DNA from: Bacteroidales bacterium
Lineage (GTDB): Bacteria; Bacteroidota; Bacteroidia; Bacteroidales; P3
Length of the DNA stretch: 64,000 bases
Assembly: GCA_017479385.1 (NCBI GenBank)
Contig: JAFVCE010000013.1
Span: 62,001 to 126,000 of the forward strand
Reading direction: 5' to 3'
Shown one piece after another: positions 4,882-59,615 of this stretch. Within the stretch, counting starts at the first letter, position 1. Each line of letters opens with the position of its first letter. The translations under genes were made by a program, and so were the position numbers. The notes beneath the pieces were generated by a model. That model ran no database searches. It saw only the letters and a list, made by a program, of their open reading frames with translations, and was not told the DNA's origin.

Positions 4882-5702
4882 AAGTTCCGATGGTTTCTGT
4901 TCTGATGCCTGTTTACCGCACAGCTCCCTATCTGCGCGAGGCGATGGACAGTATACTGTCGCAAACTTTTGCCGACTTTGAACTCATCGTGCTCAACGAC
5001 TGTTCGCCCGACTCTGCCGAGCAGATACTCGACACCTATCACGACCAGCGCATTGTGCGCTACCTCGGTCAGCAGAACGTGGGCTTGGCCAACGTCCTCA
5101 ACACGGGGCTCGACATGGCGCGAGGCAAATACATAGCCCGTATGGATAGCGACGACATCTCGCTCCCCACTCGTCTCGCCCTGCAGGTGGCCTACATGGA
5201 GGCGCACCCCGAGGTCGACCTCTGCTCTGCCGCTATGCAACTTTTTGGCGACCGCCACGAAATTTGGCAGCGCAGCCAGGACGCAGAGTTGGTGAAAATC
5301 GACGCCCTCTTCCATTCGCCGGTGCTGCACCCTACGTGTGTGTGGCGACGCGAAAGCTTCGAACGAAACAACCTGCGCTACCGTCAGACGATGGTGCCAG
5401 CCGAAGACTACGACCTCTGGACCCGTGCTCTCATTTGTGGCCTGACGTTGACCAACCTTCCTGACGTGCTCTATCGCTATCGCATCCACCCCGGCCAGGC
5501 CACCGCACGCCCCAACCAGATGGAGCAAAAAGTGCGTCAAGGATATATTAAGGTCGTATTAACATCGTTATCACATCGGCAAATCGAGCGTTTTCCGCAC
5601 TGCATCGCAGCCACCATGCTGGCCAATTGTCGAACTCGCTTCTTCAGCCCCACCAAACTACTCAAACGTCTAATCAAAGTTAACCTCAATAGCAAGCGAT
5701 GA
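4878..5702 (+). CDS. Family 2 glycosyltransferase
   Basis: GT-A fold transferase of 274 aa. The ATG at 4878 overlaps the previous stop and has GGAGG 11 bases upstream, so I prefer it to the longer frame. The N-terminus VSVLMPVYRTAPYLREA and the metal-binding MDSDD (Asp90, Asp92, Asp93) are diagnostic for GT2; the EDYDLWTRAL segment is the usual catalytic-base region. It should add one sugar from a nucleotide donor to the growing lipid-linked oligosaccharide on the cytoplasmic side. Bases 5548-5580, codons of about residues 224-234, are three units of the dispersed 11-bp repeat, just after the conserved domain. The stop overlaps the next start. Confidence 0.9.
   Translation: MKVPMVSVLMPVYRTAPYLREAMDSILSQTFADFELIVLNDCSPDSAEQILDTYHDQRIVRYLGQQNVGLANVLNTGLDMARGKYIARMDSDDISLPTRLALQVAYMEAHPEVDLCSAAMQLFGDRHEIWQRSQDAELVKIDALFHSPVLHPTCVWRRESFERNNLRYRQTMVPAEDYDLWTRALICGLTLTNLPDVLYRYRIHPGQATARPNQMEQKVRQGYIKVVLTSLSHRQIERFPHCIAATMLANCRTRFFSPTKLLKRLIKVNLNSKR
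5548..5580 (+). repeat. Three-unit copy of the 11-bp repeat inside a GT2 gene
   Basis: TTAAGGTCGTA, TTAACATCGTT and ATCACATCGGC, coding for KVVLTSLSHR. The first two units match those at 13856-13877 in 20 of 22 bases, although those lie in noncoding DNA. Confidence 0.75.
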
Positions 5703-6652: not shown

Positions 6653-7509
6653 AGCAGGCCATCATCATAACAGCCTATCGCGACTTGGAGCAGTTGCGCG
6701 ACATCGTGGATTTTTTCGACGACGATTTCGATTTCTATATCCATATCGACCGCAAGTGTGCCGAGCCGCTGCCAAACTTTTGTCACGATGGAGTGCACGT
6801 TGTGCGTCGCTATCGCATTACTTGGGGCTCCGAGCGCCACCTCTATGCCATACTGCACCTGCTGCGAATGACCTGCAACAGCCCGCACCCATACTCATAT
6901 TACCACATAATAACCGCCACCGACTACCCCATAAAACCACTCGCACAGTTCAAGCAGTTCTTCTCGGCCCAAAACACCAAATCGTATCTTGAATGGTACG
7001 AGCTGCCACGAGCCTCGTGGACTGGCGAAGGCGGAATGGAGCGCATAAAATACTATTGGATAGGCAATTCGTGGCGCGACCAACGCCAGCACCCTATGAG
7101 GCTCATGCACGCTCTGCTGAAGCTTCAGCGCAAATTTGGCCTCGACCGCTCGCGCCACGCTTTCGGCTGTTGGTATGGTGGAGGTGGGTACTGTAGCCTC
7201 AGCCATGAGGCGGCCAGCAAGCTGGCCGCCTTCAGCGCGCGCAAGGTGCGCCAGGTAGCTCGCTTTACCCACTGTTGCGAGGAGGTGCTGCCCCACACTG
7301 TGCTCCTCAACGCCTTGCCACACAGTGAGATAGAACCCTACTCATTGCATCTTTCGCTCTGGGACGCTGGCGCTGCAAGTCCGCGACCACTCACCCTTGC
7401 CGACTTGCCTACAATCGAGCAAAGCCCCTGCTTCTGGGCTCGCAAATTCGAACCAGGCACCTCAGACGAACTAAAAACCGCACTCAAAGCACGTCTCATA
7501 AAAAGATGA
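6649..7509 (+). CDS. Beta-1,6-N-acetylglucosaminyltransferase-like protein (GT14, core-2/I-branching family)
   Basis: Protein of 286 aa with the layout of bacterial GT14 'Branch' proteins: AIIITAYRDLEQL at the N-terminus, DFYIHIDRK, a WGSERHLYAILHLLR segment, YYHIITATDYPIKP, and a C-terminal CCEEVLPHTVLLN region. In bacteria such enzymes add branching sugars to polysaccharides. The gene overlaps the preceding GT2 by four bases and closes the first block of the operon; the next gene has its own promoter. Codons at 7208-7231 form a perfect 11-bp GC-rich inverted repeat with a two-base loop (AGGCGGCCAGC / GCTGGCCGCCT). Confidence 0.88.
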   Translation: MKQAIIITAYRDLEQLRDIVDFFDDDFDFYIHIDRKCAEPLPNFCHDGVHVVRRYRITWGSERHLYAILHLLRMTCNSPHPYSYYHIITATDYPIKPLAQFKQFFSAQNTKSYLEWYELPRASWTGEGGMERIKYYWIGNSWRDQRQHPMRLMHALLKLQRKFGLDRSRHAFGCWYGGGGYCSLSHEAASKLAAFSARKVRQVARFTHCCEEVLPHTVLLNALPHSEIEPYSLHLSLWDAGAASPRPLTLADLPTIEQSPCFWARKFEPGTSDELKTALKARLIKR

Positions 7510-7568
7510 AAATCACCAGAGTTGATATAAATCTGAACAATCTGCCGTACAATTTCAGAATAATTTCG

Positions 7569-7576
7569 TAACTTTG
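7569..7576 (+). promoter_or_regulatory. Promoter -7 element (TAACTTTG) of the GT2 gene at 7599
   Basis: TAACTTTG followed by CA, matching the Bacteroidota sigma consensus TAnnTTTG, 22 bases before the ATG. No clear -33 TTTG is visible upstream. Confidence 0.7.
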
Positions 7577-7598
7577 CACCTCAAAAAAACGTAGATAA

Positions 7599-8549
7599 AT
7601 GCGCTTCTCTGTTGTGATACCGGTCTATAATGTCGAACGCTACCTCGGGCAGTGTCTCGACAGTGTCGTTGGCCAGAACTTCGACGACTGGGAGGCTATC
7701 TGCATCGACGACGGCTCAACCGACCGTTCGGCAGACCTCGCTGCCCACTACGCCGCCAACGATAAGCGCATAACCCTCCTGCGTCAGCCAAACGCCGGTC
7801 TCAGCGCCGCCCGCAACGCCGGCCTCAAGGCCGCAAAGGGCGAGTATGTGCTCTTTGTGGATAGCGATGACTACTTGGAAACCAATACTTTAGAGTTACT
7901 TAACAGTCAAATCGATGGTCAAGATATGCTCTGCTTCGGAGGCTGGCGTGGCGATAAAAAGGAGTCACCCGCAGCCGAACAATTCGCCACAGGTTGGGAC
8001 TACTATAACCACCATGCACTCGAGCGACGTGAATTCCCATTCGTGTGCGTCGTGTTGCGGTGCTATCGCCGCAGTTTCTTGGTTGACAATGATTTGTGGT
8101 TCAAGGAAGGCCTGCTGCACGAAGACAATCACTTCACCCCACGTGCCTGCCTCGCCGCGGGGCGCACCTCGGTCCTGGCCGCGCCGCTCTACCACTACCG
8201 GCTGCGCGAGGACAGCATAACTGCCACCCGAACACTCCGCAGCAGGCAGGCTATGCTGCGCATAGCCAACGACCTATCGGCCCTCTTCGCGAATCGCGAC
8301 GACGTGGACACCAGCGTCATTCGTCGCGCCTTGACCCACCACTATCAAGCAGCCTTTGCTGGCGCCACGCGCGCCGAAGACAGCCAGTTGCTGCCACTCG
8401 TAGATTGGCAACTCTACCACGCGGTGAGCCGAACCCGCCTGCGCAGCCGCTTCAACTACGCCATAATGCGCCTCTCGCCCGCGCTTTTCCGTACTGTCAA
8501 CGACCTGATAGAAAGACTGAAACAAACGTCGGCCGCAGCCAAAAAATAA
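7599..8549 (+). CDS. Family 2 glycosyltransferase
   Basis: GT2 enzyme of 316 aa with RFSVVIPVYNVERYLGQCL at the start, the CIDDGSTDRS donor loop and FVDSDDY (Asp88, Asp90, Asp91). The arrangement NAGLSAARNAGL is the classic signature of the EpsJ/WbbD-like GT2 group. Unlike the upstream genes it is separated by an 89-base gap holding its own promoter, so it can be transcribed apart from the upstream block. A noncoding stretch with a transposase remnant follows, which suggests that the polysaccharide locus has been interrupted or rearranged just downstream. Confidence 0.9.
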   Translation: MRFSVVIPVYNVERYLGQCLDSVVGQNFDDWEAICIDDGSTDRSADLAAHYAANDKRITLLRQPNAGLSAARNAGLKAAKGEYVLFVDSDDYLETNTLELLNSQIDGQDMLCFGGWRGDKKESPAAEQFATGWDYYNHHALERREFPFVCVVLRCYRRSFLVDNDLWFKEGLLHEDNHFTPRACLAAGRTSVLAAPLYHYRLREDSITATRTLRSRQAMLRIANDLSALFANRDDVDTSVIRRALTHHYQAAFAGATRAEDSQLLPLVDWQLYHAVSRTRLRSRFNYAIMRLSPALFRTVNDLIERLKQTSAAAKK

Positions 8550-12343: not shown

Positions 12344-12500
12344 TCAATGCAGAACCAATGAGAGGCGAGCCAAAAAGCCTCAGCAAGCTCGTGGTAACTA
12401 CACTGGGAACCACCCTCTATTCGGCCAAGACAGACATCGGCAACCAAACCGTTGATGTAGTCGTGGCAGCCCACAAGAGCGTGGAAGTAACCCAAAAATA

Positions 12501-12596
12501 TTCAACGCGTTGAATATTTTTGGCCAAATCTGTTCAATTGGTTGAAGATTTTCGGCAAAAATTGTTCAGTGTATTGAAAATTTTTCGTATCTTTGC
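12501..12596 (+). repeat. Three tandem 32-bp repeats, operator-like, upstream of the AAA+ ATPase
   Basis: Copies at 12501-12532, 12533-12564 and 12565-12596. Each begins with an inverted repeat (TTCAACGCGTTGAA, TTCAATTGGTTGAA, TTCAGTGTATTGAA), followed by an ATTTT run and then a G/C-containing tail. The period is exactly 32 bp, about three helical turns, so all dyads lie on one face of the DNA. The first copy sits in a perfect 30-bp palindrome (12494-12523). The third copy contains the promoter -7 element of the ATPase gene. This is the form expected of a cooperative autorepressor site. Confidence 0.75.
12588..12595 (+). promoter_or_regulatory. Promoter -7 element (TATCTTTG) of the AAA+/DUF4143 gene
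   Basis: TATCTTTG followed by CAG, 24 bases before the ATG at 12620, embedded in the third 32-bp repeat, so a protein bound to the repeats would block it. Confidence 0.78.
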
Positions 12597-12619: not shown

Positions 12620-13747
12620 ATGTTAGAGCGAGATATTAAGAATAGGATTTTGAGCAAGTTGCAGCCACAAAAGGTGGCACTCTTGTATGGCGCAAGGCGC
12701 GTTGGAAAGACCGTCTTGACGCAGCAAGTAGCCGCAAGTGTTGGCAGCAATGTGATTTTTCTGAATGGAGAAGAGCCCCAAACGGTGGCTATGCTTTCTG
12801 AACGCTCGGGAGCGAACTACCAGTCGTTGTTTCGCGACGCAGAGTTGCTGGTGGTCGATGAAGCACAGAATGTGGCTGCAATAGGACAAGTCCTGAAATT
12901 GATAGTCGACACTTGCCCGTGGCTGAAAGTTATGGCGTCGGGTTCGTCGTCGTTCGACCTGCAGCAGCAGGTGGGCGAACCTCTCGTGGGTCGTGCCTAC
13001 GAGTTCAGACTTTTCCCCTTTTCGCTCAACGAGTTATCGGCCGTGGTGCCTCGCACCGATTTATGGAAGCACCTCGAAGAGTTTCTTGTCTATGGCTGCT
13101 ATCCGGAACTCTACGGTATAGGCTCGCTGAAAGACAAAGAGGACTACCTTTATGAGGTGTCGCAAGCCTACCTCTATAAAGATGTGTTGAGCATTGAAGG
13201 TGTGAAAAACTCGTCGAAAATGCGCCAACTGCTCCAGTTGTTGGCTTATCAAGTTGGGCAAGAAGTGTCGTATGAGGAGTTGGCGAGCAAGCTTGGGCTG
13301 AGCCGTAACACGGTTGAAAAATATGTCGACCTGCTATGCAAAACATTCGTAATCTACCGTTTGCCGGCTTTTTCGCGCAATCCACGCAAGGAGGTGACTC
13401 GCCCGGGCAAGATATATTTTGCCGATAACGGCATACGAAATGCCTTGATTGGCGACTTCCGCCACTTTGCCCTCAGGCAGGATATAGGTGCTCTGTGGGA
13501 GAACTACATCATTGCCGAGCGCGTTAAGAAACTGAATAATAGGGGCGAACGAGCTAATCTCTATTTTTGGCGCACGTATGAAGGGCAAGAGGTAGACTTG
13601 GTTGAAGAGGTGGGCGACGAGTTGCGTGCCTTCGAGTTTAAGTGGGGCTCGCGCTCGCCAGAGGTACCTTCGGCATTTGCCAAACTCTACCCCAATGCCA
13701 CCTATGAGGTCGTCAATAGAACCAATTTCTTGGACTTTGCTATCTGA
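12620..13747 (+). CDS. AAA+ ATPase with C-terminal DUF4143 domain
   Basis: Protein of 375 aa. I start it at the ATG 12620 (MLERDIKN); the frame extends into the promoter but has no earlier ATG. The N-terminal AAA_14 domain shows Walker A LYGARRVGKT and Walker B LLVVDEAQN, then a sensor-like MASGSSSFDL; the C-terminal DUF4143 half includes a winged-helix-like LASKLGLSRNTVEKYVDLL and a PD-(D/E)XK-like EVDLVE...AFEFKWG segment. Such proteins are widespread, strain-variable genes in Bacteroidota and are often accessory. The cellular function is not established. Three 32-bp dyad repeats cover the promoter, and the winged-helix segment makes autoregulation plausible (inference). Confidence 0.87.
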   Translation: MLERDIKNRILSKLQPQKVALLYGARRVGKTVLTQQVAASVGSNVIFLNGEEPQTVAMLSERSGANYQSLFRDAELLVVDEAQNVAAIGQVLKLIVDTCPWLKVMASGSSSFDLQQQVGEPLVGRAYEFRLFPFSLNELSAVVPRTDLWKHLEEFLVYGCYPELYGIGSLKDKEDYLYEVSQAYLYKDVLSIEGVKNSSKMRQLLQLLAYQVGQEVSYEELASKLGLSRNTVEKYVDLLCKTFVIYRLPAFSRNPRKEVTRPGKIYFADNGIRNALIGDFRHFALRQDIGALWENYIIAERVKKLNNRGERANLYFWRTYEGQEVDLVEEVGDELRAFEFKWGSRSPEVPSAFAKLYPNATYEVVNRTNFLDFAI

Positions 13748-13833
13748 CCAAAATTAGCCTCCTGTCGAGGTTTGCTAAGTGCTTGAAAATCAGCATTTAG
13801 AGGGGTGAGAATGTAAGTTACTGAAAATCAGTG

Positions 13834-14020
13834 TTGTAGATGGGTTGTGGTCGTGTTAAGGTCGTATTAACATCGAGTCAACATCGGGTAGGCCTCATAC
13901 TGGTGTCGAATCACCCTCGGAATGGTACCGAGTCAATCTCGGGTTTGCACCGAGCAAACTGTGGAATAGAACCGAGTTGGCCTCGGACTTTAAGCGAGTA
14001 AATATTGGGTTAGATATTGC
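13834..14020 (+). repeat. Array of 17 degenerate 11-bp units
   Basis: From 13834 the sequence divides without any gap into seventeen 11-base units, for example TTAAGGTCGTA, TTAACATCGAG, TCAACATCGGG, CTGGTGTCGAA, TCACCCTCGGA, ATGGTACCGAG and TTGGCCTCGGA. Positions 8-9 are CG in most units, position 7 is mostly T or C, positions 10-11 are nearly always purines, and positions 3-6 vary freely. The approximate consensus is YYNNNNYCGRR. The array ends where a GC-rich hairpin starts (14016). No ORF accounts for it, since 11 is not a multiple of three. Related units occur at eight other places in the window. The rest of this 13748-14302 gap (13748-13833 and 14045-14302) contains nothing else I recognise. 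Confidence 0.85.
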
Positions 14021-14044
14021 GGCCGCGCGAAACGCGGCCGCAAT
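14016..14044. repeat. Perfect GC-rich hairpin (12-bp stem)
   Basis: ATTGCGGCCGCG, a five-base loop CGAAA, then the exact complement CGCGGCCGCAAT. No T-run follows on either strand, so it is not an ordinary terminator. Its core GCGGCCGC is shared with hairpins at 51035 and, inside birA, at 60138. Confidence 0.7.
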
Positions 14045-14302
14045 GACCCCGCAATAGCCCCGACCTCAATCCGGATATGACCCATCTGCAATGGTAGTAT
14101 ATGTATCGCAAACCAGTTTGTTAGTTTTTTTTGCAGGGCGTTTGCCAAGGCTCGAAAAGCGAAGTCTGTTTGTTCAGCAGAGGGTGCCGTTTGGGAATTG
14201 ATAGGCAAGAGGGCCCAGATTTTTGGCAAATGGAACCGTCTTGGTCTTCGACAACTTTTTTAGGACATTGAATTAATCCAAAACACATAACGTTGAGTGT
14301 CA

Positions 14303-18459: not shown

Positions 18460-19386
18460 ATGACGATGAGAGTACTGATAGTGGCCAGTGGCAATGGGGG
18501 TGGGATGGCGCCGTTCGTAGAAGAGCAGGCCGAGGCCCTGCGCAAGGCAGGAGTCGAGGTGCGCCTCTTTTTGGTTGAAGGTCATGGCGTTATGGGCTAC
18601 CTCAGGAACCTTACTCGACTCAAAGACGACCTCAACACGACCCTAACCCATCTAATACACTGTCATTATGGGCTTTGCGGATTGCTGGCCACGCTGCAGC
18701 ACCGAGTGCCTGTGGTGACAACCTATCACGGCAGCGACGTGAACGACCCTAAGGTGTTGCCATTCAGCCGTTTGGCGGCACGTAGGTCGAGGTTTAATAT
18801 CTTTGTTTCGACCCGATTGGCTTCACGTTGTGGGGCTTCGCGCAGCCGTAGCGCGGTGCTGCCTTGTGGGGTCGACACCTCTCTTTTTCGCCCCATCAGC
18901 CGTGCCGAAGCTCGCCTCCAACTCGGTCTCGACCCATCGGCACGCTATGTCCTTTTTGCCGGAGCGTTTGCCAATGCCGTCAAGAACGCACCTTTGGCCA
19001 AAGCTGCCGTGGCTCTCTTGCCAGGCGTTAAGCTGCTGGAACTCAGCGGCTATTCGCGCCGAGAGGTGGCGTTGCTGATGAACGCTGCCGACGTGCTGCT
19101 CATGACCTCTCACAGCGAAGGGTCGCCCCAAGTGGTCAAAGAGGCTCTGGCTTGTGCCCAGCCTGTGGTGAGCGTCAGCGTGGGCGATGTCCCACTGCTG
19201 CTCGACGGCGTCGAGGGCTGCCACGTGGTGGCTCGCGACCCGCAGGTCATAGCCTCGGCCCTTGTTCGTGCCATGGCCACTGGTCGCACCAATGGGCCCG
19301 GACGTGTGGCTGCCCTCGAATTGGATAACGCCCAAGTGGCTCAAAAATTGTTATCGATATACAAAAATATTCTCGCTCCTAAATGA
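18460..19386 (+). CDS. Family 4 glycosyltransferase (GT-B)
   Basis: GT-B transferase of 308 aa. The N-terminal half has LIVASGNGGGMAPFVEEQAE and HCHYGLCG...VVTTYHGSDV, as in GT4 enzymes; the C-terminal half has LPCGVDTSLF and the retaining-enzyme E-x7-E motif in SEGSPQVVKEAL (about Glu220 and Glu228). It is slightly shorter than the usual 350-380 aa, but both Rossmann halves are present. Its stop overlaps the next ATG. It should transfer a hexose or similar sugar in the cytoplasm during repeat-unit assembly. Confidence 0.88.
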   Translation: MTMRVLIVASGNGGGMAPFVEEQAEALRKAGVEVRLFLVEGHGVMGYLRNLTRLKDDLNTTLTHLIHCHYGLCGLLATLQHRVPVVTTYHGSDVNDPKVLPFSRLAARRSRFNIFVSTRLASRCGASRSRSAVLPCGVDTSLFRPISRAEARLQLGLDPSARYVLFAGAFANAVKNAPLAKAAVALLPGVKLLELSGYSRREVALLMNAADVLLMTSHSEGSPQVVKEALACAQPVVSVSVGDVPLLLDGVEGCHVVARDPQVIASALVRAMATGRTNGPGRVAALELDNAQVAQKLLSIYKNILAPK

Positions 19387-24653: not shown

Positions 24654-27152
24654 ATGGCAAACACAACCAACAACTCAACCCAGCAGCAGGCCGACCTCTC
24701 GTTTCTTAATGGCGACAAGACGCCCACCATACACGTCAAAGACATCCTGTTCAGCATTCTGCGCAACCTGCACTGGCTCGTGATATGCGGCGCCATCGGC
24801 GCCTTCGTTGCAACCTACCAGGTGAGGCGCGAAAACAAAATCTATGCCAGTTCGGCACGAGTGATGATTAAGAGCAACACCACCTCCGACAACACCGTGC
24901 GCGACGCCACCATACGCAGCATGTTCAGCGGTCGCCCCATCTATAACACCACCATCAACAACGAGATGATGATTATGACCTCGAAAACCACCATGATGAA
25001 GGTGGTCGAAGAGCTCAAACTCAACGTCTTCTACACCGTCAACACCCGCATCGTCAAACGCTCGAAAGACCTCTATGGCGAGTCGCCCATCGATGTCGAC
25101 TTTATTGACGACGACGGCAACAGCTTTGCATCCTACATCATCACCCCGCTCAACGACCGCCGCGTAATGCTGCAATATGGCGACTACGAGCCCCTGCGTG
25201 TGCGCTTGGGCGACACCGTGACCACCCCCTTGGGACGCATTGCCATCAATCCAACATGGTTCTACACCAGCAGCTACTACGACGTGCCAATCAACGTCAA
25301 CCTACAGAGCGTGGGCGCCGCTGCCGACCGCTTTCGCTTTGCCCTGCAAGTGAGCCGCGACAACGAGTCGAACTCTATTGTCAACCTCTACCTCCGCGAC
25401 CTCTCGCCAGTGCGCGCCGCCGACGTAATCAACAAGGTTATCGAGGTCTACAACAACGATGCCATCAACGACAAACGCCGCATTATTGCCTACACCTACG
25501 ACTACATCAACGAGCGTCTTGCCATTCTGCACTCCGACCTCGGCAACCAAGAAAACGCCCTCGCCACTTTCAAACGCGACAACCAGCTACTCGACATTAG
25601 CAACATTGGCCAAACCTATGTGGCCAGCAGTATCGAGACCTCCGAGGAAATAAAACGCCTGCGCGAACAGCTCTCAATGTCGCGCTACCTGCTACACGTG
25701 TGCGAATCCTACGACGGCTCGCCGCATATCATCTCCGCCTCGGTCGGCATTGAAGACGACAACATCAATGCCATCATCGCTCGCTACAACGAGACGGTGC
25801 TGCAACTCGACAACTACGACAGCCCCAACAACCCCGTGGTCAAGCGTCTCGAAGCCGACCTGTCGGGTATGCGCAACAATATGTCGCGCCTGCTCGAGGT
25901 CTATATCGGCGCCCTCCAAGAACGCTTGGCCAACGCCCAGATTGCCAACACCGCTGCTTCGAACAAAATTCGCCAAGTGCCTGGCAAACAGCTTTATGTG
26001 GAAAACATCGAGCGCTTACAGAAGATAAAGGAGGAACTCTACCTACACCTGCTCTCTAAGCGCGAAGAACTCATGATTAGCCAGCCCAGCATCGAGGGCA
26101 GCGCAAAAATAATCGACGAAGCCCTCGTTAACCGCACGCCCGTCTCGCCCAACGAGAAACGCAGCACCACCACCGGTTTGCTCATCGGCTTGGCTGTGCC
26201 AGTGGCCATCTTCCTCCTACGCCGACTGCTCGACACCAAGGTCAAGTACTATTTCGACGTGCAACGTGGCACTTCGGCCCCATTCCTTTGCGAAATCCAA
26301 GCTCGCGAAAAGAACGACAAACGCAGCATTGTCGTCATCGACAAAAAAATCGACGGCATTAGCGAATCGTTCCGCCTGCTGCGCTCCAAGTTCGACTTTG
26401 TGCGCAACGCCGACGAGAAGCACCAATCTACCGTCGTTATGGTTACCTCGCTCCTGCCCTCGTCGGGCAAGACCTTTATCTCGGCCAACCTCGCCGCCAG
26501 TTTCGGCATTGCTGGCAAGAAGGTGGTGCTCATAGACCTCGACCTGCGCAAGGGGTCGCTCACGCGCGAGTTCTTCACCCGTCGCCGTGTGGGCCTCTCG
26601 GCCTACTTGGCCGGTAAGGTAGACGATATAGACCGCATTGTGCACCACGATGTGGTGGCCAAGGGGGTCGATACCATCTTTACCGGCGTCATCCCACCCA
26701 ACCCGACCGAGATGCTCTCGAACGGCCGTATGGACGAACTTGTCCGCCAGTTGCGCAGCAGCTACGACTACATCATACTCGACTGCGCGCCCGTGGGTTT
26801 GGTGGTCGATGTCGACATAATAAAGCATTTTGTCGACAACACCCTCTTCATCATCCGCTCGGGTATGTTCGACAAGCGCCTGCTCTCCGAGGTCGACAAG
26901 ATGTATACCGACAACCAGTTCCCCTCGATGGCAATTGTCCTCAACGACGTGCACTACAAAAAGCTTACCCACTACGAACGCAAGTATGGCTACGGCTATT
27001 GCTATGGTTATGGCTACGGCTATGGTTATGGCTACGGCTATGGTTATGGCTACGGCTATGGTTATGGTTACGGCACCGACGACGAAAGCGAAAAGGGCGA
27101 ACCCTCGGCCGAAGACTTGCCAGAACCCGACACCGCCAACCAGCAAAGCTGA
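24654..27152 (+). CDS. Wzc-like polysaccharide co-polymerase and tyrosine autokinase
   Basis: Inner-membrane protein of 832 aa. A Wzz domain with a first transmembrane helix near residues 40-60 (LHWLVICGAIGAFVATYQVR) is followed by a long coiled-coil periplasmic part and a second helix near 505-520. The cytoplasmic kinase has Walker A LLPSSGKTFIS (about residue 600), Walker A' VVLIDLDLRKG and Walker B YDYIILDCAPVG. The tail holds about 14 Tyr-Gly dipeptides (about 777-806), the autophosphorylated Tyr cluster of BY-kinases, encoded by 18-bp tandem repeats. It controls chain length and export with the Wza-like protein. The next 225 bases contain no convincing gene. Confidence 0.93.
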   Translation: MANTTNNSTQQQADLSFLNGDKTPTIHVKDILFSILRNLHWLVICGAIGAFVATYQVRRENKIYASSARVMIKSNTTSDNTVRDATIRSMFSGRPIYNTTINNEMMIMTSKTTMMKVVEELKLNVFYTVNTRIVKRSKDLYGESPIDVDFIDDDGNSFASYIITPLNDRRVMLQYGDYEPLRVRLGDTVTTPLGRIAINPTWFYTSSYYDVPINVNLQSVGAAADRFRFALQVSRDNESNSIVNLYLRDLSPVRAADVINKVIEVYNNDAINDKRRIIAYTYDYINERLAILHSDLGNQENALATFKRDNQLLDISNIGQTYVASSIETSEEIKRLREQLSMSRYLLHVCESYDGSPHIISASVGIEDDNINAIIARYNETVLQLDNYDSPNNPVVKRLEADLSGMRNNMSRLLEVYIGALQERLANAQIANTAASNKIRQVPGKQLYVENIERLQKIKEELYLHLLSKREELMISQPSIEGSAKIIDEALVNRTPVSPNEKRSTTTGLLIGLAVPVAIFLLRRLLDTKVKYYFDVQRGTSAPFLCEIQAREKNDKRSIVVIDKKIDGISESFRLLRSKFDFVRNADEKHQSTVVMVTSLLPSSGKTFISANLAASFGIAGKKVVLIDLDLRKGSLTREFFTRRRVGLSAYLAGKVDDIDRIVHHDVVAKGVDTIFTGVIPPNPTEMLSNGRMDELVRQLRSSYDYIILDCAPVGLVVDVDIIKHFVDNTLFIIRSGMFDKRLLSEVDKMYTDNQFPSMAIVLNDVHYKKLTHYERKYGYGYCYGYGYGYGYGYGYGYGYGYGYGYGTDDESEKGEPSAEDLPEPDTANQQS
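27006..27075 (+). repeat. 18-bp tandem repeats encoding the Tyr-Gly tail of the Wzc-like kinase
   Basis: Three near-perfect copies of GGTTATGGCTACGGCTAT plus a partial fourth, each coding for three Gly-Tyr dipeptides. Copy number could change by slippage in steps of six residues without breaking the frame. Confidence 0.85.
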
Positions 27153-29070: not shown

Positions 29071-29125
29071 CTTGGGTCTGGTTAAGGAGGGGTTAGGGTC
29101 GTATTGAGGTCGAACAAGCCTTGAT
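29071..29125 (+). repeat. Five-unit copy of the 11-bp repeat family
   Basis: Units CTTGGGTCTGG, TTAAGGAGGGG, TTAGGGTCGTA, TTGAGGTCGAA and CAAGCCTTGAT run without gaps. Together with the 20 bases before them they match, with few differences, the reverse complement of 43824-43885. The copy lies in the 319-base gap between the convergent OmpA-family and comF genes; nothing else is seen there besides the hairpin. Confidence 0.8.
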
Positions 29126-33966: not shown

Positions 33967-34021
33967 GTCAGGCGTTGTTCGACCTCAATACGACCTTAAC
34001 CCCTCTTTGATACGACTTTGG
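33967..34021 (-). repeat. Five-unit copy of the 11-bp repeat family
   Basis: On the - strand the units read CCAAAGTCGTA, TCAAAGAGGGG, TTAAGGTCGTA, TTGAGGTCGAA and CAACGCCTGAC. It lies 73 bases after the tolC-like gene, in the sense direction of both flanking genes. Four of the five units closely match those at 59561-59615. Confidence 0.8.
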
Positions 34022-43823: not shown

Positions 43824-43867
43824 TTCGATGTTAATACGACCTTAACCCCTCCTTAACCCGACCCAAG
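43824..43867 (-). repeat. Four-unit copy of the 11-bp repeat family
   Basis: On the - strand: CTTGGGTCGGG, TTAAGGAGGGG, TTAAGGTCGTA and TTAACATCGAA. It abuts the terminator hairpin at 43881 and, with about 18 further bases, mirrors 29051-29114. It lies between the convergent lptB and subtilase genes; the preceding 130 bases hold only an imperfect GC-rich dyad. Confidence 0.8.
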
Positions 43868-52945: not shown

Positions 52946-54184
52946 TTAGCAGCCATTGCCAGAGTATTTTTTTTCGTCCCTCAGTGCTATTTCTTTGAGG
53001 TATAGAGAGTTGCGGTATTCGCTGATGGACTCGATGGGGTCGGTGACGAAGTCGACAGGGGGCTCGACCGGTGGCAATTGGGCCTGCATTGTGCGGAGGT
53101 ATTGAAGTATTCGTAGGCCGTCGACCTTTTCGGCGCAGGCGCGGACGAAGTGGTTGATTGTCTTGAAGTTGCGGCGCAGTGGACCCCAAAGGTCGTCGCT
53201 GCCGGTTTGTTGGCGAAGGAAGTCGCTCATAGGTGTTTCGGTGTCGCCGGAGTAGAGGTGGGGCATAGTGGCAAAGGTCTCGGCAACGAGGTCGAACGAC
53301 GCGGGGTTGTAGAACGGGTAACGCTCGCTTTGGGTCGCGAGGCCCATGTCGACGGCCGGCCCAGTGCCAAACGGCACTCGGTGTGAGACTCGGCTTGACG
53401 GATATACTATTGCACTTATGTCGTTGAGTATCAAGCCGGTTTTGGCGAATTTCTGCATAAGGTAGAAGTCCTCGCCGCCAGCCAATGGGGTTATGCCCCC
53501 CACACGGCGATAGGCCCAGAGCGGGAAGGCCATTGCCGAACCGAGGGCGCTTATGGCGTAGGGGTTGCTGATGCGCAGCAGGTTGATGAAGTAATGGCGC
53601 ATATAGCACTCGTAGCGGAGCAGGGCTCTATTCGATGTTGACAGCACCTCAACCCGACCTTGACCCGATGTTGACAGCACCTCAACCCGACCTTGACCCG
53701 ACCCGTCACCGATGTCGACTTGGTGGTAGTATGGAATTTGTGCGGCGCAACAGTGGGGGTGTTTGTTAAAGCTGTCGAGCAGGGTTTGGCAGTAGTTTTC
53801 GTCGACCGTGGTGTCGGCGTCGAGGCTGGCGACGATGGTGTTGGGCGAGCAGGTAGCAGCAATGGCGTCGAACAGCGTTTTCCGAGCCCAACCCACGCCT
53901 CTTTTGCGCCCTGTCCAGCCGTGACCAGGGCTGCTGCGGTCTATGATTGTGGCTTCGGGGCAGAGTCTTGGTAGCAGGTTGAGCAGTGCCTCGTTGTTGC
54001 GGCACGTGGCGCGCTGGTGCTCATCGGGCGAGGTGTGCCACTCGTCGGGCTGGTTGACACATATATATAATGTGTAGTTGCGGTTGGTTTGTTGGCGGAG
54101 GCAGGCTGCGAGGTTGGGTAGTGTTTCCAGCTCGTCGGTGGCTGGTATGGCTATGGCAATATGGTTGTAGGGGTCGGTAGCCAC
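52946..54184 (-). CDS. Family 2 glycosyltransferase with an in-frame 11-bp-repeat insertion
   Basis: GT2 enzyme of 412 aa. The N-terminus HIAIAIPATDELETLPNLAAC and the DXD in VASLDADTTVDENYC are the GT-A donor motifs; GGEDFYLMQKFAKTG gives the catalytic-base region. Residues of about 163-184 read GQGRVEVLSTS twice, encoded by six units of the 11-bp repeat (53631-53696). They lie between AAQIPYYHQ and LLRYECYMRHYF, parts that would otherwise be contiguous, so this is a tolerated loop insertion. Seven bases separate it from the M14 gene. Its acceptor is unknown, and it lies far from the main locus. Confidence 0.85.
   Translation of the reverse strand: MATDPYNHIAIAIPATDELETLPNLAACLRQQTNRNYTLYICVNQPDEWHTSPDEHQRATCRNNEALLNLLPRLCPEATIIDRSSPGHGWTGRKRGVGWARKTLFDAIAATCSPNTIVASLDADTTVDENYCQTLLDSFNKHPHCCAAQIPYYHQVDIGDGSGQGRVEVLSTSGQGRVEVLSTSNRALLRYECYMRHYFINLLRISNPYAISALGSAMAFPLWAYRRVGGITPLAGGEDFYLMQKFAKTGLILNDISAIVYPSSRVSHRVPFGTGPAVDMGLATQSERYPFYNPASFDLVAETFATMPHLYSGDTETPMSDFLRQQTGSDDLWGPLRRNFKTINHFVRACAEKVDGLRILQYLRTMQAQLPPVEPPVDFVTDPIESISEYRNSLYLKEIALRDEKKYSGNGC
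53631..53696 (-). repeat. Six-unit 11-bp repeat array inside a GT2 gene (33-bp tandem duplication)
   Basis: On the - strand: TCAAGGTCGGG, TTGAGGTGCTG, TCAACATCGGG, then the same three again with the last ending in CGAA. The 33-bp duplication keeps the frame and encodes 11 residues twice. Confidence 0.88.
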
Positions 54185-59560: not shown

Positions 59561-59615
59561 TTGAGGAGGGGTTAAAGAGGGGTTAAGGTCGTATTGAGGT
59601 CGAACAAGGCTTGAT
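59561..59615 (+). repeat. Five-unit copy of the 11-bp repeat family
   Basis: Units TTGAGGAGGGG, TTAAAGAGGGG, TTAAGGTCGTA, TTGAGGTCGAA and CAAGGCTTGAT. It lies between convergent POT and birA genes, in a 321-base gap that otherwise holds the two terminators. Confidence 0.82.

What the first reader, a model, noticed from the sequence alone, without database searches (positions are those of the whole stretch)
13834..14020. A 187-bp array of seventeen 11-bp units with fixed and variable positions
The sequence falls into 17 contiguous 11-mers with no insertion or deletion. Positions 7-11 are constrained (mostly YCGRR) while positions 3-6 differ almost freely (AAGG, AACA, GGCC, GGTG, ACCC, GGTA, AATC, TGCA and so on). 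Ordinary tandem repeats drift without such a position-specific split. Eleven bases is one turn of A-form helix, or about one turn of B-DNA, so an array-binding protein or a structured RNA is conceivable. It lies in a gene-free stretch beside a strain-variable AAA+ gene and ends exactly at a GC-rich hairpin. I do not know a described element of this form.
Basis: seen in the sequence. Interest (0 to 1): 0.85.

Follow-up and report, generated by a model that had tools for sequence, protein, structure and literature searches.

The report
Helix-phased repeats between facing genes
A short DNA pattern that recurs every 11 bases, with little but a CG-containing core held constant, sits in most gaps between genes that run head-on into each other in a small group of related bacteria, which suggests an unrecognised DNA-level signal that handles the end of transcription or the twisting stress built up there.

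Summary
The array is real (lag-11 identity 72/176; 0 of 5000 shuffles reach it). It is one copy of a dispersed family: 91 arrays in 777 kb of this genome, 2 in reversed sequence. A conserved core is followed by a tail in which little but CG(A) at one phase of 11 bp survives (93 of 147 tail CGAs at one phase, 12 one base off). The fixed triplet changes from TCG to CGA along the array. In three related species, ladders of four or more CGA at 11-bp steps occupy 51 of 78 convergent gaps, 2 of 81 divergent and 17 of 199 co-directional ones; periods 8-10 and 12-14 give at most 2 gaps per class. Of 51 convergent gaps of 100 bp or more, 44 hold exactly one core array. RNA folding is below that of ordinary gaps; terminal repeats do not covary. 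Best reading: a duplex-DNA element at convergent 3' ends, wrapped or bound once per turn; gyrase is the leading candidate, unproven. In other congeners 11-bp arrays have other units and contexts, so the convergent rule is clade-limited.

The parts
13821..13831 (+). Head palindrome CTGAAAATCAG, followed after 7 nt by GATGGG; head of the T3 type
   Evidence: G000:C1:75821-75843 = window 13821-13843; the corresponding palindrome of T1 copies covaries at three pairs
13834..13888 (+). Conserved core units 1-5 (TTGTAGATGGG TTGTGGTCGTG TTAAGGTCGTA TTAACATCGAG TCAACATCGGG)
   Evidence: dispersed matches, all but the self-match within query positions 1-63
13889..14020 (+). Degenerate tail units 6-17, keeping mainly YCGR every 11 bp
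   Evidence: pattern over other T2/T3 copies
14016..14044 (.). GC-rich hairpin, 12-bp stem, 5-nt loop, no T-run; the last array unit runs into it
14045..14074 (.). C-rich stretch after the hairpin with units in inverted orientation (weak, read by eye)
   Evidence: tandem period 11 at 14038-14062
29071..29114 (+). T1 array, intergenic, convergent context
33978..34021 (-). T1 array, intergenic, co-directional context
43824..43867 (-). T2 array, intergenic, convergent context
59561..59604 (+). T1 array, intergenic, convergent context
53631..53718 (-). Array inside a glycosyltransferase gene (52949-54184, -): about 21 extra amino acids in frame (SGQGRVEVLST repeated); 53633-53701 is a perfect 33-bp tandem of 2.1 copies
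18603..18646 (-). Array-like units inside a glycosyltransferase ORF (18460-19386, +)
5537..5569 (+). Short core match inside an ORF, 26.9 bits
38972..39004 (-). Short core match inside an ORF, 35.2 bits

Best explanation
The array is one copy of a dispersed double-stranded-DNA element that marks the gap between convergent genes. SHOWN by computation: a family of conserved cores with free tails; an exact 11-bp phase of CG; change of the fixed triplet from TCG to CGA along the array in the own species; one element in most convergent gaps; near absence from divergent gaps; the same phase and context in two related species. INFERRED: the sequence is read on the duplex, once per helical turn, because phase survives where sequence does not. 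Alternating A/T-rich and G/C-rich half turns with a reversal of polarity suggest DNA wrapped in two opposed arms around a two-fold symmetric complex. PROPOSED: DNA gyrase, or a protein that works with it, is that complex; positive supercoils pushed together by two facing RNA polymerases are trapped exactly there, and the array is a built-in landing site.
For: Convergent gaps of at least 100 bp with an array: 22 of 23 and, on a contig not used to train the profile, 23 of 28; divergent 0 of 24 and 3 of 30. CGA ladders of four or more in gaps of 80-900 bp: own 30 of 53, sister G114 16 of 20, G135 5 of 5 convergent; 1 of 57, 0 of 19, 1 of 5 divergent; periods 8-10 and 12-14 at most 2 gaps in any class. 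Exactly one core array in 44 of 51 convergent gaps and two in 1; random insertion at that occupancy would give about 32 gaps with two or more (my Poisson arithmetic). Tail phase: CG at phase 7 in 70 of 158 (+76 to +130) and 58 of 176 (+130 to +200), no CG phase upstream (p 0.23); A and T runs are phased as well. 93 of 147 tail CGA at one phase, 7 and 5 one base off. T at phase 7 is only 0.06 and 0.11 in the two tail stretches, so plain C-to-T decay does not explain the residue. TCG-to-CGA change in 49 T1 and 35 T2/T3 copies; TCG before CGA in 31 of 36 ordered own convergent gaps. RNA folding scores below those of ordinary gaps. An 860-aa frame with six GyrA C-terminal repeat hits is encoded. 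Passages read: E. coli gyrase motif with two periodic 47-bp regions, gyrase downstream of operons (PMC6379681); positive supercoils accumulate between convergent genes (PMC8360656).
Against: No binding or expression data exist here. The E. coli gyrase motif has a 10-bp G/C phase, not 11. One arm can run past 130 bp, longer than the published motif. The polarity reversal was not reproduced outside the own species: the sister has 4 informative convergent gaps, 1 for and 3 against, and 4 co-directional ones, 0 for and 3 against; G135 has no informative convergent gap. Upstream of the core A and T runs also show some phase (AAA p 2e-14, TTT p 4e-6, best near 11.5 and 10), so one-sidedness holds for CG only. 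In congener G028 the arrays lie mainly in divergent or co-directional gaps (13 and 8 of 23); six other congeners together give 2 of 29 convergent gaps; the two array loci listed in G149 are not convergent. In E. coli, downstream gyrase enrichment was reported as not hard-wired in sequence. Orientation in co-directional gaps is biased (17 versus 4), which a symmetric site need not show. The three species share homologous cores, so they are not fully independent.
Confidence: 0.35

Rival explanations
1. Protein filament or roadblock: a DNA-binding protein sits once per turn, touching CGA, spreads from the core, and stops RNA polymerase or keeps the two facing transcription units apart (insulator).
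For: Polar contact: in-phase tail CG is followed by A in 93 of 132 and preceded by T in 30 of 132; strict phase; one per convergent gap; orientation bias in co-directional gaps, 17 versus 4.
Against: No protein identified; polarity reverses along the array in the own species; terminator-like sites were called on 28 of 44 and 20 of 44 sides of convergent gaps with one array, so blocking is not obviously needed, although that caller is not strand-specific (49 and 51 of 160 on sense and opposite strands of co-directional gaps without an array).
Confidence: 0.22
2. Mobile or selfish repeat (MITE-like) that multiplies and survives only where harmless, that is at 3' ends.
For: T1 has inverted ends of about 19 bp; 16 of 91 arrays overlap called ORFs, among them an in-frame glycosyltransferase insert absent from congeners; lineage-specific amplification.
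Against: One per gap rather than random numbers; no convincing target duplication; T2 and T3 lack the inverted ends; conserved phase in otherwise free tails; no Y1 transposase of the REP type (other transposases not searched).
Confidence: 0.25
3. Rho-dependent terminator: YC steps every 11 nt form a Rho loading ladder.
For: Position at 3' ends. The C-rich strand of the core is G-poor; in the tail the element's own strand, which is sense to the upstream gene, is mildly C-rich (C 0.29, G 0.22, my sum for +76 to +131) with C at phase 7 the most conserved base, so each strand has a C-richer half.
Against: In co-directional gaps the C-rich strand of the core is antisense to the upstream gene in 17 of 21; an RNA ladder should not need an exact 11-bp phase over 15 units (inference); the CG step rather than YC alone is kept.
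Confidence: 0.15
4. Structured RNA or cruciform.
For: Strong hairpins lie near some copies (21 of 46 convergent ones); z below -2 in 15 and 17 of 49 T1 regions; G028 and G012 carry inverted 11-mer arrays.
Against: Median folding z of arrays is -0.7 to -1.2 against -2.4 in 50 co-directional gaps without arrays; inverted ends show no covariation beyond one outer pair at p 0.02.
Confidence: 0.03

Closest known systems
REP/BIME elements of enterobacteria (BIME-2 as gyrase sites)
   Same: Many copies, intergenic, gyrase sites over-represented in BIME-2 (passages of PMC6379681; abstract start of PMC2817692 in a search listing)
   Different: REPs are palindromes with a Y1 transposase relative; here 11-bp direct units, phase kept without sequence, no Y1 transposase found
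BrickBuilt MITE of Porphyromonas gingivalis
   Same: Tandem units inside an intergenic repeat with leader and tail in a Bacteroidales genome (abstract and passages of PMC4596501)
   Different: 23-nt units, 19 copies, TIRs like IS5-family ones; here 11-bp degenerate units, 91 arrays in 0.78 Mb, tied to convergent genes
PINSR, 188-bp repeat of Prevotella intermedia
   Same: Lineage-specific intergenic repeat with 177-184 copies (passages of PMC4755523)
About 11-bp periodicity of bacterial genomes
   Same: Period near the helical turn (abstract start of PMC4132750 in a search listing)
   Different: That is a genome-wide bias; here discrete arrays, CG-centred and restricted to particular gaps

Membership tests
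MITE | terminal inverted repeats | tested here: inconclusive
   T1 has inverted ends of about 19 bp as a consensus; T2 and T3 do not
MITE | target-site duplication | tested here: not met
   50 T1 copies, many registers scanned: flanking direct repeats of 4 bp in at most 3 copies; best excess at 3 bp 7 against 1.5, at 2 bp 12 against 4.5, in different registers
MITE | parent transposase with the same ends | not tested
   only Y1 transposases were searched
REP/BIME | RAYT (Y1) transposase in the genome | tested here: not met
   0 matches to PF01797 in the own genome; 5 of 14 control genomes ring
REP/BIME | high copy number, intergenic, 3'-end bias | tested here: met
   91 arrays in 34% of the genome, 75 intergenic and 16 in called ORFs; contexts
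BrickBuilt | 23-nt spacerless repeats | tested here: not met
   11-bp degenerate units
Gyrase site | two G/C-phased arms around a centre | tested here: inconclusive
   T1: CG phased at units 0, 2 and 3, absent or rare at units 4-5, phased again from unit 6 (units 2-3 fixed by my regular expression); period 11 not 10; T2/T3 have no such gap
Gyrase site | gyrase binding or cleavage | not testable with these tools
   needs Topo-Seq; a frame with six GyrA C-terminal repeats is present
Rho terminator | C-rich, G-poor strand in the sense of the upstream gene | tested here: inconclusive
   core orientation is the opposite in 17 of 21 co-directional gaps, but the tail is mildly C-rich in the sense direction
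Rfam RNA families | match above gathering score | tested here: not met
   0 matches in the window

The most novel reading that the evidence does not exclude
Convergent gene junctions in this clade carry a hard-wired helical code: about 100-200 bp in which little but a CG(A) contact once per 11-bp turn is kept, reversing polarity along the way, so that a two-fold symmetric wrapping machine (gyrase or a new nucleoid protein) docks wherever positive supercoils collide. The same 11-bp grammar with different words is used elsewhere in the genus.
Probability: 0.3. Interest if true: 0.92.

Novelty: new variant of a known kind. Interest (0 to 1): 0.77.

Why it matters
If right, it gives a sequence-encoded answer to how a bacterium manages facing transcription units, and makes the question of whether topoisomerase sites are hard-wired in the genome testable by deleting or re-phasing single arrays. 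It also shows a mode of conservation (phase kept, letters lost) that ordinary searches see poorly: the window has no Rfam match, and blastn with the focal array aligned only its first 63 bases to other copies, although the tail phase is shared.

Tried and rejected
Rejected or weakened: chance; lone tandem repeat; RNA stem between the inverted ends; RNA structure generally; REP/RAYT; classical MITE; genus-wide 3'-end rule (go against it). Not settled: Rho (on re-checking the tail is C-richer in the sense direction, so I withdrew an argument and raised this rival from 0.12 to 0.15); a substitute for intrinsic terminators (28 of 44 and 20 of 44 sides called, shuffled 7 of 51, but the caller gives 49 and 51 of 160 on the two strands of co-directional gaps without arrays, so it is not strand-specific); orthologous gap comparison (7 syntenic gaps found, none convergent).

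Limits of the counts. The own-species profile is insensitive in the sister (6 of 20 convergent gaps at 16 bits), so the ladder statistic was used there. The ladder of four or more was first applied to own and sister together; G135 was the fresh test, with 5 convergent gaps only. At period 11 the triplet GAC also makes ladders (11 of 53 own convergent gaps), as expected from CGAC; five other triplets gave at most 2. Gene calls come from a home-made hexamer caller; some contexts may be wrong (C5 368230 counts as empty though its printed sequence shows an element cut by a gene call). T1 copies were collected with a regular expression, so the invariance of units 3-4 is by construction. In one search five of nine homologues gave a readable alignment across the insert; for the other four my script picked a wrong frame. 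G114 is taken to be the same genome as G083 (L031) because contig numbers and places agree. The 60 relatives did not include G114 or G135. DNA uptake sequences were considered and not pursued (search listing only).

Full report
Observation. The 187 bp at 13834-14020 form 17 contiguous 11-mers. Identity at lag 11 is 72/176 against 44.4 +- 5.8 in dinucleotide-preserving shuffles (0 of 5000), with harmonics at 22, 33 and 44. The array lies between an AAA_14/DUF4143 ATPase gene ending at 13747 and a family-2 glycosyltransferase gene starting at 14297. It is preceded by the palindrome CTGAAAATCAG and ends in a 12-bp GC hairpin (14016-14044).

A family. A search of the own genome gave 41 matches; apart from the self-match they align to the first 63 bases (40 of 178 candidates were scored, so this is a lower bound). 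0 of 60 relatives matched at E <= 0.001; the two species found later to share the family were not among them. A unit profile trained on contigs C1 and C14 and applied unchanged to C1, C14 and C5 (777 kb) finds 91 arrays of at least 24 bits, 75 intergenic and 16 in called ORFs, and 2 in reversed sequence. Three types share the core: T1 with inverted ends (TAACTGCCTGATATTCAGG...CTTGATATTCAGGCAGTTA), T2, and T3 with the palindromic head, to which the focal array belongs. The window holds nine arrays of that score.

Where they lie. Convergent gaps of 100 bp or more hold an array in 22 of 23 (C1, C14) and 23 of 28 (C5, not used to train the profile); divergent in 0 of 24 and 3 of 30; co-directional in 10 of 68 and 10 of 60. 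At 30 bits or more, of 51 convergent gaps of that size 44 hold exactly one, 1 holds two and 6 none; of all 62 convergent pairs 17 have none, 8 pairs having gaps under 60 bp. At this occupancy independent insertion would give about 32 gaps with two or more (Poisson arithmetic of mine). Two of the six empty ones contain, by eye, a cut element (C5 368230) or a different 11-bp array (C14 99955) in the sequences printed. Of 72 intergenic arrays of 30 bits or more, 46 are convergent, 17 co-directional with the G-rich strand in the sense of the upstream gene, 4 the other way, 3 divergent and 2 at contig ends.

Phase without sequence. With cores masked, lags 11, 22, 33, 44, 55, 66 and 77 are all among the ten highest in convergent gaps; in divergent gaps they are not, and co-directional gaps show a weaker lag 11. 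Downstream of 50 T1 cores, CG falls at one phase of 11 in 70 of 158 cases at +76 to +130 and 58 of 176 at +130 to +200, fading beyond 200; upstream CG has no phase, though A and T runs have some. The tail reads roughly NNNNNNNCGAY per unit. Of 147 CGA in the tail 93 are in phase, with 7 and 5 one base off, so indels seem not tolerated even where letters are free. In-phase CG is followed by A in 93 of 132 and preceded by T in 30 of 132. Along the element the triplet changes from TCG (first units) to CGA (tail), in T1 and in T2/T3 alike. In the own genome TCG precedes CGA in 31 of 36 ordered convergent gaps; in the sister only 4 convergent gaps are informative and 3 of them go the other way, and G135 has none, so the reversal is established for the own species only.

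Related species. Tex downstream sequence led to a sister species (RUG14866; L031, genome handles G083 and, by matching contigs, G114) with its own version. The core pattern TTAAGGTCGNNNTWACATCG occurs in 3 of 119 genomes of the genus searched, own included: G000 36, G114 16, G135 5 times; backwards control 0. CGA ladders of four or more at 11 bp in gaps of 80-900 bp: convergent 30 of 53, 16 of 20 and 5 of 5; divergent 1 of 57, 0 of 19, 1 of 5; co-directional 9 of 150, 7 of 39, 1 of 10 in own, sister and G135; periods 8-10 and 12-14 give at most 2 gaps per class. Six other congeners gave 2 of 29 convergent gaps and G149 of another family 0 of 19. Yet 11-bp arrays with other units are widespread: five CGA at 11-bp steps occur in 64 of 120 genomes of the genus, own included, and in 24 of 294 other genomes of the order; in some congeners the backwards control is also high, so there the period rather than CGA is the constant. 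In 260 kb of G028 period 11 alone is seen among the five periods tested, with hairpin arrays in mixed contexts and T3-like arrays in divergent gaps in 8 of 11 cases. The convergent rule is therefore, on present data, a property of the three-species clade.

Mobility. Arrays also sit inside genes, in frame. The glycosyltransferase at 52949-54184 carries about 21 extra residues that five readable homologues lack (nine were tried), and matches in many congeners break off near residues 156 and 184. The same peptide occurs in another own frame of 360 aa. The insert includes a perfect 33-bp tandem. So units spread and duplicate; target duplications were not found.

Mechanism. RNA is disfavoured: the inverted ends do not covary, and folding scores are weaker than in 50 ordinary gaps, though 15 and 17 of 49 T1 regions fall below z -2. 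Rho is weakened by the orientation of the core and by the exact phase, but the tail is C-richer in the sense direction, so it stays open. A duplex-reading complex fits best. Positive supercoils are trapped between convergent genes (PMC8360656, passages), E. coli gyrase has a motif with two phased arms and lies downstream of operons (PMC6379681, passages), and phased G/C is discussed as helping wrapping (PMC12393610, passages). The own genome encodes an 860-aa frame with six GyrA C-terminal repeat hits. Against this: 11 not 10 bp, a long arm, orientation bias, a reversal not reproduced in the sister, and other contexts in other congeners. I therefore rate gyrase or a partner as the most likely single mechanism but well below even odds.

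Literature. In the listings of ten answered searches I saw no description of such arrays; the library lacks most subscription journals. Nearest are BrickBuilt (PMC4596501) and PINSR (PMC4755523).

Noticed in passing
window 52949-54184 and G000:C16:52499-52639: In-frame array insert (SGQGRVEVLST repeats) in a glycosyltransferase, and the same peptide in another own frame; recalls repeat insertions in coding genes of other bacteria (the comparison is from memory).
   Followed up: partly
G028 C1 (L229-L241), e.g. 7471-7621: Inverted arrays of CGATTGTTCTT units forming long hairpins; the genome has 204+193 matches to the 5xCGA/11 pattern.
   Followed up: partly
G012 C16 (L174-L178) at 2003 and 14148: TTACGGTAGTA units repeated and then inverted around a short loop, two near-identical copies.
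   Followed up: no
G149 C1 92725-92827 and C2 85468-85548: In another family of the order, highly degenerate CGA-every-11-bp arrays, outside convergent gaps.
   Followed up: partly
G027, G073, G012 stretches: Tandem repeats of period 7 are frequent in these congeners (75, 125 and 80 sites per Mb against 7.7 in G000).
   Followed up: no
sister loci L140-L148: T1-like cores embedded in a longer repeat flanked by ATGTTAAATTTTAACAT-like palindromes.
   Followed up: no
window 12492-12584: A 32-bp imperfect tandem repeat just upstream of the AAA+ gene.
   Followed up: no
window 26985-27074: Five 18-bp copies TATGGTTATGGCTACGGC.
   Followed up: no
G000:C22:34628-34740: Long nearly regular array of CGACCTTAACC/CGACCTCAACC units.
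   Followed up: no
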